Positions 2,966-36,415 of a DNA stretch of 41,505 nt are shown here, piece by piece. The notes under the pieces were generated by a model. That model saw only the letters and a list, made by a program, of their open reading frames with translations. It searched no databases and was not told the DNA's origin. The DNA comes from a virus: positions 1 through 41,505 of IMG/VR virus record IMGVR_UViG_3300021083_000089; one strand, given 5' to 3'. The position numbers and the translations under genes are program-made. Positions within the stretch are counted from its first letter, which is position 1; each line of letters opens with the position of its first letter.

Positions 2966-2991
2966 AGGTTTCCTTTTTAAAGTTGAAACCT
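2966..2991 (-). promoter_or_regulatory. Leader hairpin overlapping the ribosome site of the hendecad gene
   Basis: AGGTTTC (2966-2972) pairs with GAAACCT (2985-2991). On the minus-strand mRNA the ribosome site of the gene starting at 2962 (AAAAAGGAAACC) lies partly in this stem, so folding could limit translation. Confidence 0.35.
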
Positions 2992-3009
2992 GAGGTTAAT
3001 CGGCATTGT

Positions 3010-3024
3010 TTGTTTATACAACAA
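3010..3024 (+). promoter_or_regulatory. Inverted repeat, possible operator of the XRE gene
   Basis: TTGTT-TATAC-AACAA is a perfect inverted repeat with a 5-nt centre, 19 nt before the XRE gene's ATG. The centre TATACA could serve as a -10 element. This would suit autoregulation. No convincing -35 is seen. Confidence 0.3.
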
Positions 3025-3042
3025 AGCGCAACCTACGAGCAT

Positions 3043-3249
3043 ATGGAAACTGTCAACGAAAGAGTTGGAAGGAATATAAAAATGATACGCTTATTGCGCG
3101 GATTGTCTAGGGAACAGGTCGCCCGCAATATTGGCGTATCATCACAACAATTATATAAATACGAGAATGGCATTAACGCCTTATCCCCACAGCGTTTAGA
3201 GGATATATCTAAGACGCTTAGCCGTAAGATCTCGGATTTATTTATTTAA
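3043..3249 (+). CDS. XRE/HTH_3-family transcription regulator
   Basis: The 68-residue protein consists of one helix-turn-helix domain of the HTH_3 (Cro/CI) type: RVGRNIKMIRLLRGLSREQVA, then IGVSSQQLYKYENG and SPQRLEDISKTL. It has no dimerisation or peptidase domain, so it is a Cro-like single-domain regulator. The ATG at 3043 is preferred to a TTG at 2983 because the domain begins there and the extra 20 residues look unstructured. The gene stands alone on the plus strand inside the leftward late block. Its 3' end overlaps the convergent o-spanin gene by 8 bp. It may control the adjacent leftward gene or act as a moron-encoded host regulator. Confidence 0.75.
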   Translation: METVNERVGRNIKMIRLLRGLSREQVARNIGVSSQQLYKYENGINALSPQRLEDISKTLSRKISDLFI

Positions 3250-25656: not shown

Positions 25657-27018
25657 TTAATTGTTGATGGTTTTAAGAGTGTTCTTCAGCAAGCCAGATT
25701 TCTTGGTCGCGGAAGAATCAGCAGCGAAACCGACTGTTGACACATTGCGATTATGAAGATAACCAGCCAGAACTGCATGTTCGTTACCAGCAGCGCATTC
25801 AATCCCAAGCTTCTTAACACCATATGAAGCAACTTCTGCAAGTGTTTTGTCCGCATGGTCGAACGTTCCGATGTGGGCTGATAACTTACTTGCCAGCGCA
25901 TCGCGCGCACTAACTTCTGCAAGGATTGCTTTAGTGCTACTCTTTTTAAAATCAGCAAGTTCTTTACTTACTTTCTTAAATGCAGCATCCATTCCTTCAG
26001 TTTTCTTAACACCTTCAACTTTTTCATCGCGTTTAATGTCGCTGTCTTTAGTGTCTTTTTTTTCTTCATCATCTTCAAGGTCATCAGCACATTTCATTTG
26101 GCCGTTTTCACCAATTGAAAGGTCATCTTCGGCCTTTTTCTCTTTATCTTCTTCAGCATCTTCTGCTTTTTTCTTTTCCTTTTCTTCTTCCATAGCATCC
26201 TTTGCCATGCGCTTTTCAGCCCAATCCAGAACCTTTTCTAAACGGTCTTCTTTTTTGTTTTCTTCTGCCATTTGCAAATCCTTTGCATCAAATGTTATTT
26301 TAAAATGATCGAGTACAGATACTTCCTTACCCATCCTGCCTTGGTCAACAAGGGCAAGATGATTACCCCTGATGTTTCTTTGAATCGCGTCATACTTAAT
26401 GCCATTCCATACGCCCGATACCATCTCATAAACACAACGATATCCGGCGGATAATTCTTTCTTTCCTGCTTCAATTAATTCAGCAAGATTTTCTGAGAAA
26501 ACCTTGATATTTCCGTATAAAATGCCGTCTTTGTAATAAACAGATTCGCCTATTATTCCCTCAACGCCCTTCTGTTCGGCAGGGGTTAAACCTTCCGTAC
26601 TAGCGCCGAGCATTACATGGTCATTGATAAATGGTACAAGCTTGAATGATTCGAGCGCCTCATACGAAGCAAGCTCCTCTTCAGGGCGATATACATTGTA
26701 GATTTCACCGGGATTAGGTGCGCCAATACTTGCACCTGAGTATGGAAAAACACCAACCTTACTAAGGGGATTGTCTTTGATTTCGTACCATCCGTTAGTA
26801 TCGCTGACACGCTTTGAATCTGTATCACCTGTTGTCTTAACTTCAACATCAGATTTACTACCACCGCGGACTATTCCGCCTTCGCCTTGCGTTTGCGCAT
26901 CCTTACCAGCCTCGCTATAAGCTATGGCCTCGCTTTGCTTTTGAGTATGTCCAGCCTTCACGAGCTCGGCGATATTTGCCGAAATAGTGGCTTCGCTTGA
27001 ACCTTTTCCTAATGGCAT
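25657..27018 (-). CDS. DUF2213 prohead protease/scaffold
   Basis: The ATG at 27018 has a GAGGATTAGA ribosome site and begins [20 protein letters not shown], a motif typical of phage head proteins. Residues about 90-250 form the DUF2213 domain ([72 protein letters not shown]). DUF2213 is linked to prohead proteases. Residues about 265-345 are a highly charged Glu/Lys/Asp coiled coil and the rest is helical, as expected for a fused scaffold. Total 453 residues. Confidence 0.82.
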
Positions 27019-27019
27019 T

Positions 27020-27868
27020 CTAATCCTCAAATTCAATTACTGGCTTTATTCTACATCTACAGTTTATGGCATCGCCCGGTATGCCGCGCTGGCCTGTCTT
27101 TATGTCAATTATTGGCGGGTCATCAAAGCGGTAAACGTTACCATTCATCGCAATATGTTCTTTACGAGGATGATTAGAGCCGCCCGTGTGTAACCACTCG
27201 AACTTTTTTAATCCTGCCGCTTGCAACCTGCCCTTGCTAATATTGTTGTATGCCTTGCGCGTTTGATCATGTGCTATCATCTTTGCGCGGCGTAACGTGA
27301 TACCTTTTTGCTGTTCGAGAAATGGCACCAAGTCAGCCAGCCCTTGACCATTGGTTATTGAGCGCAGTACTGCGCCTTGCACCTGTTCAAGATATTGCAT
27401 TGGTATTGATTTTATGAGCGCTACATTCTCAGCAACCGAAGCTTTGAGAACTTCTCCTATCTCTCCATTAAGTCCTGTAGTCGGGAGCGATAACCCACCT
27501 GTGAGCTGTTGTAAACTGATCTTAACCCCGGACGCACTGGCCTTGTTCGCATCATCAACCATTTCGGTTGCGTAGGTCGTTGCTTTGTCCGAGAATAATG
27601 CCTCGAACTGTTTCTGTAATTCGTTTGAAAATCGCTTGGCTTCGGCAACGATGCTTTTATCATCTTGTGCAAAATACTGTTGCGCTGGTTCTGCATTATA
27701 AAGCTTTCTTACTGCCGACATGGTGGCATTTGTCATTTCTGTGATAAGTCTATCAAGTTTAGTACGGTAACGTATGGCGGAAATAGCACTAGGATTAAGA
27801 GGCGATCCTTGAATCGTTTGAGGTTTATTCGCCCTTATCTTTCGTAGCTGCTTCCTCGTCAACTTCAT
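27020..27868 (-). CDS. MuF-type minor head protein
   Basis: The 282-residue protein ends in a typical gpF/SPP1 gp7 domain: [38 protein letters not shown], then [20 protein letters not shown] and a final [11 protein letters not shown]. The Asn-Cys-Arg-Cys near the end is the family hallmark. It acts at the portal vertex during head morphogenesis. The sequence before its ATG has no Shine-Dalgarno motif; it is made of the AT-rich repeats that also form the plus-strand promoter. This is unusual, because related phages place it directly after the portal. Confidence 0.85.
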
Positions 27869-27870
27869 TT

Positions 27871-27923
27871 TATGATATTATTATGATATTTGTTGTTGAC
27901 TTATGATATTATTATGATATTAT
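27871..27923 (+). promoter_or_regulatory. Rightward promoter with two 20-bp direct repeats
   Basis: The element TATGATATTATTATGATATT occurs exactly twice, at 27871-27890 and 27902-27921, and is itself a doubled TATGATATT. TTGACT (27896-27901) followed after 16 bp by TATTAT (27918-27923) makes a near-consensus promoter for the plus-strand cassette. One repeat lies just upstream of the -35 and the other fills the spacer, so a protein bound there would block RNA polymerase. Confidence 0.7.
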
Positions 27924-27982
27924 CCAGTTACAGGCAGCGAATAACGAGGCCGGAAATTAAAAAGGAATAGAAGGATAAAATC

Positions 27983-28240
27983 ATGACTTTCGTATTTGAC
28001 AATAAAGCCGATATCAATACTGTTAAATTTGTAGTTTCACACAGCAAACAGCTATTAGTTTTTGGTTTTGAAAATGAAAAGGACGCAATAGAATCAGTTG
28101 ACGATTTAAATGCACAGCACAGCCAATTTTACAAAGATGAAAATGGTAATTGGGAAACTACCGATGCAGAATGTCCTGCTTACATTGTGAGCCTTGAAGA
28201 ATTTAAAGAAATCCTTGTTGAAAATGAGTCAATAGCATGA
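27983..28240 (+). CDS. Small acidic protein of the plus-strand cassette (anti-CRISPR-like position)
   Basis: The 85-residue protein starts after a good ribosome site (GAAGGATAAAATC). It is acidic (about 20 Asp/Glu) with a beta-rich N-terminal part (VKFVVSHSKQLLVFGFENEKDA) and a helix at the C-terminus (SLEEFKEILVEN). No family recognised. The gene overlaps the following HTH gene by 4 bp, and both are read against the surrounding head genes. A small acidic protein plus an HTH protein behind a dedicated promoter is the layout of anti-CRISPR/Aca modules. The role is inference. Confidence 0.55.
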   Translation: MTFVFDNKADINTVKFVVSHSKQLLVFGFENEKDAIESVDDLNAQHSQFYKDENGNWETTDAECPAYIVSLEEFKEILVENESIA

Positions 28241-28413
28241 CGTCCGAAGAACTCCAATTTCTCTGTAATAGATATGGTTCGCAAACCGAAGTTGCTAAAA
28301 TCACAGGATACAGCGCGGCCTATATTAACCGTCTGATTCACGGCAAGGATAAAATCACTAATAAAATTGCTTATAATTTTAAAGAAAAATTCCCTGATTA
28401 TTTTATTTCATGA
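28237..28413 (+). CDS. 58-residue HTH protein (Aca-like autoregulator candidate)
   Basis: The ATG at 28237 overlaps the TGA of the acidic gene (ATGA). The product MTSEELQFLCNRYGSQTEVAKITGYSAAYINRLIHG... contains one helix-turn-helix: QTEVAKITG, then YSAAYINRLIHGKDK with the turn at Gly. The remainder is a short helix (KIAYNFKEKF). It is the right size for a single-domain repressor that could bind the two 20-bp repeats upstream. It is too short to have a dimer domain. The 3' end overlaps the convergent portal-extension ORF by 16 bp. Confidence 0.6.
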   Translation: MTSEELQFLCNRYGSQTEVAKITGYSAAYINRLIHGKDKITNKIAYNFKEKFPDYFIS

Positions 28414-28931
28414 AGTTCAATATATTTTTTTAGAGTTGGAAAATTAAAGCCACGCTTTTTAGAATATTTTTCTAACTGTGATGCGCTCACTTTCCCTTGT
28501 TTATCACGCGGTAATGAAGTAATCCCGCTATTCCATTGCTGACGACGATTTATAGTATTTTCCCTTGTCCATTCATTAGCTTCTTTAAGCTCGCTTTCTT
28601 TCAGCTTAAGATTTTTCTTATGATATTCTGTCGAGCTATTGCCATGAGGATTATATCCCTCTGCGCCTTCGTTGTATAAATTGCCGTGAGATATACCCTT
28701 TTTTATATTTTCAATATGAGACTTTATATTTTCAATATGAGATTGATAGGGGGGCTTTGTGGTTTTTGATTCTGATTCTTGTAAATGTTTAGGGGAAACT
28801 TTTTGACCATTAAGCTTTCCACCAGCCCCACCTTTGACGGTATATTCGCCGCCCTCACCTTCTATAAGTAAATGACTTCCGGTTTCTGTTGTTATCCAGT
28901 GCTCTTCAGCATCTTTCCCATCCCTAGAAAT
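28398..28931 (-). CDS. In-frame continuation of the portal beyond its UAA stop (possible readthrough or split domain)
   Basis: After the portal TAA (28932-28934) the same frame stays open for 177 codons. It has no ATG, TTG or GTG usable as a start (only a GTG near the end; the first codon after the stop is ATT). Its sequence is convincing protein: DGKDAEEHWITTETGSHLLI with GGAGGKLNGQKVSP, like the 'W-I-T-...-H-V-L-I ... G-G-K-x-N-G' tail domain of some phage portal or minor head proteins, then LYNEGAEGYNPHGNSS and a basic helical end (KYSKKRGFNFPTLKKYIELHE). Options are stop-codon readthrough, ATT re-initiation after portal translation, or a recent nonsense mutation. Confidence 0.5.
   Translation of the reverse strand: MSRDGKDAEEHWITTETGSHLLIEGEGGEYTVKGGAGGKLNGQKVSPKHLQESESKTTKPPYQSHIENIKSHIENIKKGISHGNLYNEGAEGYNPHGNSSTEYHKKNLKLKESELKEANEWTRENTINRRQQWNSGITSLPRDKQGKVSASQLEKYSKKRGFNFPTLKKYIELHEIK
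28702..28743 (-). repeat. Two 21-bp tandem units
   Basis: A 21-bp unit is repeated twice (28702-28722 and 28723-28743), differing only at the last base. In the portal-extension frame it encodes SHIENIK twice. Being in frame, it keeps the reading frame open. Confidence 0.65.
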
Positions 28932-30425
28932 TTACTGCTGATCATCTTCAAGTTCCTGATCAACTTCTAACTCCATGCCATTGTAACCACTATCTTTATC
29001 TGCAATTAGTCTAGCCCTAACATCTTCGCCGTCAATTGCACCATTAGCAACCTGGGCAGAATCAGCTTGTGCTTTCTTGAGGTTAATATCCGCAAGCTCT
29101 GCCGCCGTCGGGCTATCAACAGGATGCCAGTTTATTTCAGTAGCAAATGGAGGGATACCGAACTTCGGCGCAACTTCCGATCTGATAAGTAATAAATGGT
29201 GACGTTCTACTAATGGCGATAAGTCGTGCTCTTGAATACTTTCAAGCTCTTCGTGATAGCTCGCTTCCTCAAATTCACCTGTTGCATTAAAGCCTTTTGG
29301 TGATGTGCCGAGCAACTTAGTCGCAGGAACTCCAGAAGCCGCCGCAACGATCTGATATTGTGTCATTATCACCGCATCAAGTTCGCTAAGTGATGTATCA
29401 AATTGCTGAATTTCTTCGGTTTCTTTATCAATAAGCTTTGCACCAAAATTATTTTGATATGCAAGCCACAATTCCATTTGCGCGTTGAAGCCTTCTAAAT
29501 CACCAAAAACCTTCGCAGTATCAACTTTAAGCACGGTTAGACGCTTAGTCATCGCAAGCATGGGCGCTTCATTCGCCGTACGCTCTGCCGCATACACACG
29601 TTCCATAATTTGCTGTGTGACAGGTACGCCGCCATACAGATATGTAGGCTTTAAAATATCAGGCAAGCTACCATTGCGGAAAATCACCAAGTGCGAACGA
29701 TGAATACGCTGTGCATTGACACGCCACCATGTCGGCTCATAAAAGTGCATTGATGCAGGATTAGCAACCGCTTCAAAATCAAGCTCTGGTGTGACCCAAT
29801 TGGGATCAATTAAGCTGATACCTTTATAACTACCTTTGCGAATACCGTCAGGATTGAAAGGCTTTTGATAATATTCAGGATCTGGACTATCCACATGGAA
29901 CATTGCAATACGAATTCCAAACACACGTCCTTTCGCAACGAAGTCAACACAATGGCTTTTGATCTTGAATTCTTTATCTTTTTGCCGGATATAATCCAGT
30001 ACTTCAGGCTTTATTTCTTTCCCGTCATTGCTCGTTACTTCATACCCGTGGCGGCAAGCGTCCTTTGCTGGCATTGAACAAGCCTTGCGAATCAACCAAT
30101 GTTGATCAAGCATAGCGCAAGCTTGCCATCCAATGAATCCTTGACCTGCATAGTATTCGAGCAATACTTCCGATACATTTCCTAGATATCCGCCCTGAAT
30201 CTTAAGCGGGATAGGCTGACATAATGCACTATCCATTGCGAACTGCGAACCATCAGGATTGACGGCGGCGAATTCACTGGCGTCCTTCTGAAATGTTTTT
30301 TTCAGAAGATCAAGCTTTCTAACTTCAACAGCATATTCAGCCGTTAATTTATTATGTTCTGGGTTAAAAAATCCGCGCACCGTCTTAACTATAGCGGTAG
30401 TCGATTGTTTTTTAAACCAGTTCAT
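28932..30425 (-). CDS. Portal protein (DUF1073-like)
   Basis: The 497-residue protein has the DUF1073 order: [42 protein letters not shown], then [39 protein letters not shown], and [57 protein letters not shown]. The last motif is the most diagnostic. It forms the dodecameric DNA entry and exit ring. It follows TerL by 25 bases. See the open frame after its stop. Confidence 0.9.
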
Positions 30426-34094: not shown

Positions 34095-36197
34095 ATGAAT
34101 CACATAGACGGCTTTATTGATGCATTATCCGCTTTCGGGCTGAGTCCTAGGGAATCGGTACGCTATACTGGCGGCGCATCAAACATCGTTAGGTATCATG
34201 TCGAAGGTGACAAGCATAGCCGTAAGAATGGCTGGTATTGGCTCGATAGCGATAACGGCATATCGTTCGGCGCATTTGGAACTTGGCGGGGAAATGTTAG
34301 TGAAAAATGGTGTAGCAAGAAGAAATCAGAGTTCACGCCAGTTGATAAAAAAACGATCTCAAATAAAGAGAAGCAGTACAAGGATGAGGAAACCATCAAA
34401 CAAGTCTCAGCAGCGGCAAGAGCTAATCGTCTATGGGAAGAGTCGTTACCTGCAATAACTCACTACTACATCGAGAAGAAGGGCATTAATCCGCCGACTA
34501 TCCGTATCACTCGTGGCAGACTCTTGATACCAATTACTAAAAATGGACAGATAGTCAATCTACAGATTATCAACCGAGACGGCTTGAAGTTGTTCCTTAA
34601 AGGCGGGGAGATCAAGGGTTGCTATAGTATTATACCCGGGCTAACAAACATAATCTACATTTGTGAAGGGTATGCTACCGCCGTCAGTGTTGCAGAGGCC
34701 ACGGGTTGCATGACGATTGTAGCGTTCAACGATAGCAATCTTGTCCCTGTAGCAAAGGTCATTCGCATGGAATACAAAACTTCTCAAATCATCATTGCGG
34801 CGGATAACGACAAGATGACTGAAGGGAACCCCGGTCTAACGTGGGGAAAGAAGGCGGCTGTCGCTGTAGGTGGTGTGATGATGTATCCGGAGCATGATAA
34901 TGACTTTAATGACCTTCATAGTTTAAAAGGATTGGAAGCGGTAAAGGATGCATTGACAATTCCATCCTCAAAACAAACTCAAACCATGATAGCGCCAGAT
35001 TGGAGATCGTTTTTAATACCTGGCAATGTCAATAAAGCTGATGAGGGCTATCCGTTTCCGTATAAAGAAAAAAGCAAGATGAACGTGTATTTATTCATGA
35101 AAAATTTACATAACATCTTCGCTTACAATGAGTTCAGTGACGAAATTGTGATGATGAAGTCACCTGAATGGAACTATTGTCCTGACTTTATGCCGCGTAG
35201 GGTTAATGAAGAAGATTTTTTTAGGGTAACGGCGCATCTTGAACGTTATGGACTGAGCACGGGAAAGGATGTTGTTTTTGATGCTGTGGTGGCTATTGCG
35301 AAGGAAAACACCATTAATCCGCCGCGTGATTTTTTTAATACCCTTGTTTGGGATAAGGTTCCCCGATTAGACGGTTGGCTAAAAAAATACATGGGTGCGA
35401 ATGATCAACCTGAAAAATACCTCGGACTTGTTGGTAGTAAATGGTTGATCGCAGGGGTATCGCGTATTTTTATGCCGGGGTGTAAGTTTGATTCGGTTCT
35501 AGTTCTTGAAGGCAGTCAGGGTGTTGGAAAAAGTACGGCGCTTCGAACGCTTGCGACGTTTAATGGTGCTGATTATTTTATTGATAGCGTGGGAGATATT
35601 CGTAACAAAGATACGATTATGACGCTTCAAGGAAAGATGATTATTGAGATGCCAGAACTGGCAACCATGCGTAAATCGGATAATGAGGAAATGAAGGCAT
35701 TCTTTAGCCGTCAAGTTGACGAATACAGGCCACCTTACGGTAGGTTGACTATACGTAGGCCGCGCTATGGAATCTATGCGGGAACAACTAACGAGGTATC
35801 TGATGGATACTTGACGGATACTACAGGTAATCGCCGTTATTGGCCTGTGCGCTGTGGTGTGGTGGATAATAACGCGCTTGATCGTGATAAGTATCACCTA
35901 TGGGCGGAGGCAGTTCACCGCTACAAAGATGGTGAAAAAATATGGATGGAAGACGAACAAGTAAAAATATCGATGATAGAACAAGAAAGCAGAATGCAGA
36001 TTGACCCGTGGCAAGATATGATTGAGGGAATGATTAACGGATTGCCTAGCGTTACGATAGATGAAATATGGGAAAAGCTTGGTATTGGCGCGAAAGACAG
36101 AACAAGGCAAAACAGAACGAGAATAAAAACAGTATTGCAGATGCTGGGGTGGTATGAATCAAAAAGAGGAAGTAAAAGAGCATGGAAAAAGAAATAA
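34095..36197 (+). CDS. Toprim-VirE primase/helicase
   Basis: The ATG at 34095 (700 residues) is preferred to upstream starts, since MNHIDGFIDALSAFG begins a natural N-terminus. Middle segments (NIIYICEGYATAVSVAEATG, then IIIAADNDK and EHDNDFNDLH) form a Toprim domain. The C-terminal half is a VirE-type ATPase: Walker A LEGSQGVGKST (about residue 470), then GDIRNKDTIMTLQGKMIIEMPEL and ATMRKSDNEEMKAFFSRQVDEYRPPYGR. The TGNRRYWPVRCG phrase is typical. It would unwind and prime DNA at the adjacent origin. The ribosome site is weak. Confidence 0.85.
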   Translation: MNHIDGFIDALSAFGLSPRESVRYTGGASNIVRYHVEGDKHSRKNGWYWLDSDNGISFGAFGTWRGNVSEKWCSKKKSEFTPVDKKTISNKEKQYKDEETIKQVSAAARANRLWEESLPAITHYYIEKKGINPPTIRITRGRLLIPITKNGQIVNLQIINRDGLKLFLKGGEIKGCYSIIPGLTNIIYICEGYATAVSVAEATGCMTIVAFNDSNLVPVAKVIRMEYKTSQIIIAADNDKMTEGNPGLTWGKKAAVAVGGVMMYPEHDNDFNDLHSLKGLEAVKDALTIPSSKQTQTMIAPDWRSFLIPGNVNKADEGYPFPYKEKSKMNVYLFMKNLHNIFAYNEFSDEIVMMKSPEWNYCPDFMPRRVNEEDFFRVTAHLERYGLSTGKDVVFDAVVAIAKENTINPPRDFFNTLVWDKVPRLDGWLKKYMGANDQPEKYLGLVGSKWLIAGVSRIFMPGCKFDSVLVLEGSQGVGKSTALRTLATFNGADYFIDSVGDIRNKDTIMTLQGKMIIEMPELATMRKSDNEEMKAFFSRQVDEYRPPYGRLTIRRPRYGIYAGTTNEVSDGYLTDTTGNRRYWPVRCGVVDNNALDRDKYHLWAEAVHRYKDGEKIWMEDEQVKISMIEQESRMQIDPWQDMIEGMINGLPSVTIDEIWEKLGIGAKDRTRQNRTRIKTVLQMLGWYESKRGSKRAWKKK

Positions 36198-36415
36198 AAT
36201 TAAAACTAATTGAAAAATATGGAACTATCAAGAATGCTTCCGCTGATATGGGCGTTTCCCAAACCTATCTTTGTGCCGCACTAAAGGGTAGAGCGCATAT
36301 ATCGTTAAATCTGGCGTTCATAATGGAAGAATATTTAGAGTTATCTGCGCTTGAAATTATGCAACAACAATTAATAAATGAGATTAACAAAAGGAGGGAG
36401 AATGAAAGCTCATAA
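36182..36415 (+). CDS. Small HTH protein
   Basis: The 77-residue protein overlaps the primase-helicase by 16 bp. It contains a helix-turn-helix (KYGTIKNASADMGVSQTYLCAALKGRAHIS) followed by a helical C-terminus (LAFIMEEYLELSALEIMQQQL) rich in Glu/Lys/Arg. It resembles Cro-like transcription factors of phages. No obvious regulator site nearby. The role may be gene control in the replication operon. Confidence 0.65.
   Translation: MEKEIKLKLIEKYGTIKNASADMGVSQTYLCAALKGRAHISLNLAFIMEEYLELSALEIMQQQLINEINKRRENESS

What the first reader, a model, noticed from the sequence alone, without database searches (positions are those of the whole stretch)
27871..28413. Plus-strand acidic-protein/HTH cassette with repeat-studded promoter in the head operon: Acr-Aca-like module
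Between portal and minor head protein, against the direction of all neighbours, sit a small acidic ORF (85 aa) and an overlapping 58-aa HTH ORF, behind TTGACT-N16-TATTAT flanked and filled by two exact 20-bp repeats. Known anti-CRISPR loci in phages are often a small unrelated protein plus an Aca HTH repressor inserted between structural genes with a dedicated promoter bound by Aca. The sequence shows the architecture; the anti-CRISPR function is inference, and the opposite strand orientation is unlike the Pseudomonas examples. An alternative is a toxin-antitoxin-like or superinfection moron.
Basis: partly seen in the sequence, partly recalled or inferred. Interest (0 to 1): 0.8.

Follow-up and report, generated by a model that had tools for sequence, protein, structure and literature searches.

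The report
Autoregulated accessory-gene cassette in phage head operon
A phage carries a two-gene add-on (a small acidic protein of unknown function plus what is probably its own on-off switch protein) slotted backwards between two head-building genes; the arrangement is real and looks like a phage accessory-gene insertion, but nothing ties it to anti-CRISPR in particular.

Summary
On the + strand, against the late operon, lie a 21-bp direct repeat in two exact copies, an extended -10 promoter inside it, an 85-aa acidic ORF (pI 4.2) and a 58-aa HTH ORF overlapping by ATGA. The repeat far exceeds chance, and the HTH gene shows purifying selection. One near-identical contig carries the same cassette; 104 other portal-minor-head loci do not. 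In 74 of these, including the two closest (76% portal identity), my ORF calls put portal and head genes in overlap. The cassette is 32.8% GC, while no other late-operon stretch of that length is as AT-rich. It is therefore an acquired moron at a junction that accepts other cargo. The acidic protein has no detectable relative in any library searched, and its model is unreliable. The HTH is a confident 4-helix Cro/C-protein-like fold with no tail that could bind a toxin. Best reading: an autorepressed accessory operon whose effector probably acts on the host or on rival phages. A specific Acr-Aca assignment is not supported: no Aca match, and the promoter repeats are direct, whereas every tested Aca family uses inverted repeats (PMC9410906). 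Interest is moderate: a new ORFan in a familiar kind of module.

The parts
27870..27890 (+). direct repeat copy 1 (two TTATGATATT decamers); candidate operator
   Evidence: exceeds 2000 dinucleotide shuffles
27901..27921 (+). [quoted passage not shown] candidate operator
27896..27923 (+). sigma70-like promoter TTGACT-N16-TATTAT with extended -10 TG
   Evidence: consensus match only
27970..27975 (+). Shine-Dalgarno-like GAAGGA, 7 nt before the ATG
   Evidence: read from sequence
27983..28240 (+). 85-aa acidic ORFan (pI 4.2), candidate effector
   Evidence: 99% identical in L002; no family, PDB, plasmid, phage or GTDB-contig relative
28237..28413 (+). 58-aa Cro/XRE-type HTH protein, candidate autorepressor; ATGA overlap with the acidic ORF
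   Evidence: HTH_3 23.2 bits vs cut-off 23; AlphaFold pLDDT 94, 4-helix HTH; purifying selection between alleles
27020..27868 (-). flanking minor head / Mu F-like gene, 282 aa
   Evidence: PF04233, phrog_324
28414..28931 (-). portal C-terminal extension frame, cut off from the portal by an in-frame TAA here; uninterrupted to the portal in L002, where its distal part is different
28932..30425 (-). flanking portal gene, 497 aa
   Evidence: PF06381, phrog_4660, phrog_146

Best explanation
This is a horizontally acquired accessory operon (moron) at the portal / minor-head junction of a tailed phage, pointing against the late genes. A strong extended -10 promoter makes an acidic-protein/HTH mRNA; the HTH start overlaps the acidic stop, so translation is probably coupled. 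The HTH protein is inferred to bind the repeat decamers that fill and flank the promoter and to switch its own operon down once it accumulates. That gives an early burst or low steady expression, independent of the opposing late transcription. The acidic protein is inferred to act outside virion assembly, on a host or competing-phage target (defence, host takeover or superinfection). Shown: anatomy, insertion, absence from relatives, composition, HTH fold, purifying selection on the HTH. Inferred: operator binding, autorepression, effector role.
For: Cassette held only by one other contig. tblastn finds neither protein in 104 other portal/head loci; in 74 of them the called portal and head ORFs overlap and in 84 the gap is at most 60 nt. 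In L057/L058 (76% portal identity) the head frame begins inside the portal gene. Independent small genes sit at the same junction in L006, L011, L035, L087 and L108, some with HTH-like ORFs, so the site accepts cargo. GC 32.8% vs 43.0 +/- 3.1% in the late operon, no other 545-bp stretch as low. Repeat significance and promoter. The exact decamer occurs only once elsewhere in 41.5 kb, so the regulator looks dedicated. HTH alleles differ at 10 codons with 4 conservative aa changes, neutral P about 0.001. Confident HTH model. The small HTH, its place downstream in the operon and repeats over the promoter parallel Aca10 (65 aa, TTGCAA-N16-TATTCT; PMC9410881).
Against: No binding or expression data. 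Dyad symmetry of the repeats is at chance level, unusual for a dimeric XRE repressor. Only two, nearly identical, carriers are known, so conservation of the operator and of the acidic ORF cannot be tested (3 substitutions, one non-synonymous). Whether the phage is temperate is unknown: no tyrosine integrase was found, and the record may be incomplete. Many of the 104 loci are related to each other, so they are not independent observations.
Confidence: 0.62

Rival explanations
1. Acr-Aca locus: the acidic protein inhibits a host CRISPR-Cas complex and the HTH is an Aca autorepressor.
For: Order effector-then-HTH, small size, own promoter and overlapping repeats match acr-aca operons in layout (PMC9410881, PMC9410906). 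Weak AcrIIA15-like hits to the HTH.
Against: No Aca/Acr homology. Direct rather than inverted repeats. Host and its CRISPR-Cas type unknown. Small-ORF + HTH layout is shared with many other modules.
Confidence: 0.12
2. Type II toxin-antitoxin module with toxin first and HTH antitoxin second (HigBA-like order).
For: Gene order and autoregulation fit. Weak hits to HigA models and to plasmid HigA genes (TIGR02607 E 0.04, plasmid tblastn E 0.4). HigA among fold neighbours.
Against: The HTH is 58 aa, essentially the HTH fold with no extra tail to bind a toxin. All hits are far below curated cut-offs. The acidic protein matches no toxin family, and pI 4.2 does not suit an RNA-binding RelE-type toxin.
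Confidence: 0.08
3. The repeat element controls the minor-head/capsid genes as well: the HTH protein acts on the divergent region between acidic ORF and head gene, and the cassette is a late-gene regulator rather than cargo.
For: The repeats start 1 nt before the head-gene ATG, with a weak minus-strand promoter-like site (9/12) across them. I see no Shine-Dalgarno before that ATG.
Against: Relatives run portal to head without any such element, so late transcription by read-through suffices. The minus-strand site is a weak consensus match of a kind that shuffled sequence also gives.
Confidence: 0.06
4. Effector is a superinfection exclusion or prophage-encoded defence protein expressed from the silent prophage (a narrower version of the best explanation).
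For: Orientation against late genes suits expression when they are off. The relative L058 carries CI/Cro-like HTH ORFs, a ParA-like ORF and an acyltransferase-like ORF, by eye.
Against: No integrase, and I saw no CI-like gene in the window. The acidic protein shows no obvious membrane segment.
Confidence: 0.12

Closest known systems
acrIC7-acrIC6-aca10 operon (Aca10; PMC9410881)
   Same: Very small HTH protein (65 vs 58 aa) at the end of a short operon; promoter with N16 spacer overlapped by repeat sites
   Different: No sequence match found; Aca10 binds a 21-bp palindrome, here the repeats are direct; effector unrelated
Phage morons (accessory genes with own promoter inserted between structural genes)
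   Same: Insertion at a conserved structural junction, absent from relatives, atypical GC, own promoter
   Different: Carries its own HTH regulator and runs against the late operon
HigBA-type toxin-antitoxin operons
   Same: First gene small protein, second gene HTH, likely autoregulation
   Different: HTH lacks extra antitoxin length; acidic protein is not HigB/RelE-like; scores far below cut-off
Restriction-modification controller (C) proteins such as C.BclI, C.AhdI, C.Esp1396I
   Same: Nearest fold neighbours of the HTH model (TM about 0.7); small autoregulators
   Different: Foldseek E only 0.04-0.19, 13-20% identity; no R-M genes seen nearby
HTH protein in viral contig L004 (IMGVR_UViG_3300021135_000037)
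   Same: Only non-sister sequence relative of the HTH found in viral contigs: 55% over 31 residues including the recognition helix
   Different: Overlaps an ORF that looks like a divergent repressor and lies upstream of replication-type genes (a Cro-like position); no acidic partner

Membership tests
Acr-Aca operon | HTH protein homologous to a known Aca family | tested here: not met
   No Aca match in Pfam, NCBIfam, PHROGs, PADLOC or by phmmer against PDB sequences, which include solved Aca proteins (Aca1 7C0A and Aca2 7CQ8 named in PMC9410881)
Acr-Aca operon | inverted repeat in the core promoter bound by the Aca | tested here: not met
   Best dyad 8/10 pairs, reached by 128 of 500 mononucleotide shuffles; repeats are direct
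Acr-Aca operon | small non-structural protein upstream of the HTH, same strand, short spacing | tested here: met
   layout only
Acr-Aca operon | effector inhibits CRISPR-Cas | not testable with these tools
   host unknown; needs an assay
Moron | inserted between genes that are adjacent in relatives | tested here: met
   104 portal/head loci lack it
Moron | own promoter, atypical composition | tested here: met
   promoter by consensus only
Moron | own terminator | tested here: not met
   no terminator-like site after 28413; often present in morons but not in all, so weak as a criterion
Type II toxin-antitoxin | homology of either gene to a toxin or antitoxin family above cut-off | tested here: not met
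Type II toxin-antitoxin | antitoxin neutralises toxin | not testable with these tools
   needs co-expression assay

The most novel reading that the evidence does not exclude
The acidic ORFan founds a new anti-defence or host-takeover protein family, controlled by an autorepressor that reads same-face direct repeats (spacing 11/20/11 bp) rather than the inverted repeats used by Aca proteins.
Probability: 0.25. Interest if true: 0.55.

Novelty: new member of a known kind. Interest (0 to 1): 0.4.

Why it matters
Accessory genes with their own repressors are where phages keep counter-defence and host-control proteins. This one has no detectable relatives, so if active it would be a new effector. 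The portal / minor-head junction of this phage group, which repeatedly gains small genes and portal tail extensions, is a place to look for more.

Tried and rejected
Distant relatives of the acidic protein: none in viral contigs beyond the sister contig, GTDB contigs, plasmids, or 754 sampled genomes of two classes; phage hits were spurious (E at least 0.5, tape measure). Its AlphaFold model (pLDDT 57) gave no usable fold match. Profile search with the HTH gave nothing beyond the sister contig and L004. Repeat 21-mer in other viral contigs: only the sister. No Rfam RNA in 27000-29500. The HTH is not a paralogue of the 36182-36415 HTH. Considered and rejected: acidic protein as a conserved head protein; repeats as chance.

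Full report
OBSERVATION. The window is a 41.5-kb linear viral record, 42% GC, with structural genes on the minus strand (portal, minor head, terminase) and replication genes on the plus strand. The acidic ORF is 27983-28240 (85 aa, pI 4.2) and the HTH ORF 28237-28413 (58 aa), sharing ATGA. The repeat is 21 bp, two exact copies 31 bp apart. Each copy holds two TTATGATATT decamers, so four decamers start at 27870, 27881, 27901 and 27912. The spacings 11/20/11 put all four near one face of the helix (inference). The longest exact repeat in shuffles of the same region was 12 nt (2000 shuffles). The promoter TTGACT-N16-TATTAT carries an extended -10 and is the only + strand site of at least 10/12 between about 6.6 and 32.9 kb. 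Repeats overlap both promoter hexamers.

CODING EVIDENCE. One other public viral contig (IMGVR_UViG_3300037098_000001; L002/L005/L030) carries the cassette: acidic 99%, HTH 93%. The flanks are 99% and 98% identical, but the 28407-28788 stretch is replaced by other sequence there. HTH differences are clustered (most of 15 substitutions within 28296-28323), as if a patch came from a diverged homologue. They change 10 codons but only 4 residues, all conservatively (K/R, T/S, A/V, I/V). Random placement of the same changes gives 8.2 residue changes on average, P(<=4) about 0.001, and a stop in 48% of trials. The HTH gene is therefore very probably translated and selected. The acidic ORF has only 3 changes, too few for a test.

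INSERTION. 104 other loci with both portal and minor-head homologues were compared. None has either cassette protein by tblastn. In 74 the called portal and head ORFs overlap; in 84 the gap is at most 60 nt (ORF starts were taken as the first ATG/GTG/TTG, so overlaps may be over-called). In the two closest (L057/L058, portal 76%, head 71%) the head frame starts inside the portal 3' end. The sequence GAGCTTGAAACTGACGAGGAGCAA there corresponds both to the window's portal end and to its head-gene start, so the insert separated and duplicated that overlap (read). The segment inserted relative to L057 runs from the portal extension to the repeats (about 1.06 kb in the window, 1.85 kb in L002) and includes the cassette. 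Other relatives carry other small genes at this junction on the operon strand (L006, L011, L035, L087, L108), some with HTH-like ORFs. I saw no other convincing insert on the opposite strand. GC of the cassette is 32.8%; no other 545-bp stretch of the late operon (43.0 +/- 3.1%) is as low, while some early-region stretches are.

PROTEINS. The HTH matches HTH_3 at the Pfam threshold and models at pLDDT 94 as four helices plus a short C-terminal turn. Fold neighbours are the XRE class at large: C-proteins, CapH, HipB, DdrO, P22 C2, HigA, AcrIIA15. Nothing in it exceeds the HTH domain, unlike antitoxins that need a toxin-binding part. The only non-sister relative found lies in what looks like a Cro position in L004. 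The acidic protein has no relative in any library and no reliable model. The predicted alternation of strands and two helices is indicative only.

MECHANISM. The layout points to an autoregulated accessory operon: transcription from the strong promoter, coupled translation, then HTH binding to the decamers that occlude -35 and -10. This is the logic shown for Aca1, Aca2 and Aca10 (PMC8434428, PMC9410881, PMC9410906), and also for HigA-type autorepressors. The exact decamer occurs only once more in the genome, inside the portal extension frame, so the regulator appears dedicated to this operon. What the acidic protein does is not shown. The pattern (acquired, non-structural, absent from relatives, independently transcribed) favours a target in the host or in rival phages.

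WHY NOT ACR-ACA BY NAME. Two features that define the class were tested and not met: Aca homology and a core-promoter inverted repeat. The working analogy stands; the membership claim does not. The toxin-antitoxin reading suffers from the missing antitoxin tail and missing toxin match. The late-gene-control reading lacks positive evidence.

VERDICT. Real, acquired, probably autoregulated, effector unknown. A new member of a known kind of module, interest moderate.

Noticed in passing
28932-28934 (minus strand), portal stop: The portal ends at an in-frame TAA where the sister contig L002 has GAA and continues to a 927-aa portal; the 172 codons after the TAA stay open here. Could be a real truncation or an assembly error.
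   Followed up: partly
28414-28931 vs L002:6442-7734: Portal C-terminal extensions are exchangeable: shared first 50 residues, then different tails; L002's holds two related KWITxxGxH-type units and a marginal ParB_N-like match (E 0.057). L009/L027 portals reach 1004 aa.
   Followed up: partly
L006:6037-7959, L015:1579-3354, L017:7482-9257: Minor head proteins of 591-640 aa end an extra internal segment with ...HNCRC at a conserved CRC motif, which looks like an intein in the minor head gene.
   Followed up: no
2983-3249 (+): Second plus-strand HTH gene (88 aa) at the far end of the minus-strand late genes, weakly like the HTH of Wolbachia phage WO regulators (Wmk model 47 bits, far below cut-off 300).
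   Followed up: no
28296-28323: Patch of the HTH gene strongly diverged between the two carriers inside otherwise 99% identical DNA, suggesting gene conversion from an unseen homologue.
   Followed up: partly
27866-27890: The minor head gene starts directly at the repeats with no Shine-Dalgarno sequence visible.
   Followed up: no
L135 (L058 record, IMGVR_UViG_3300035170_000032): Closest fuller relative carries Cro- and CI-like HTH ORFs, a ParA-like ORF and an acyltransferase-like ORF (by eye), no tyrosine integrase found: possibly a phage-plasmid.
   Followed up: no
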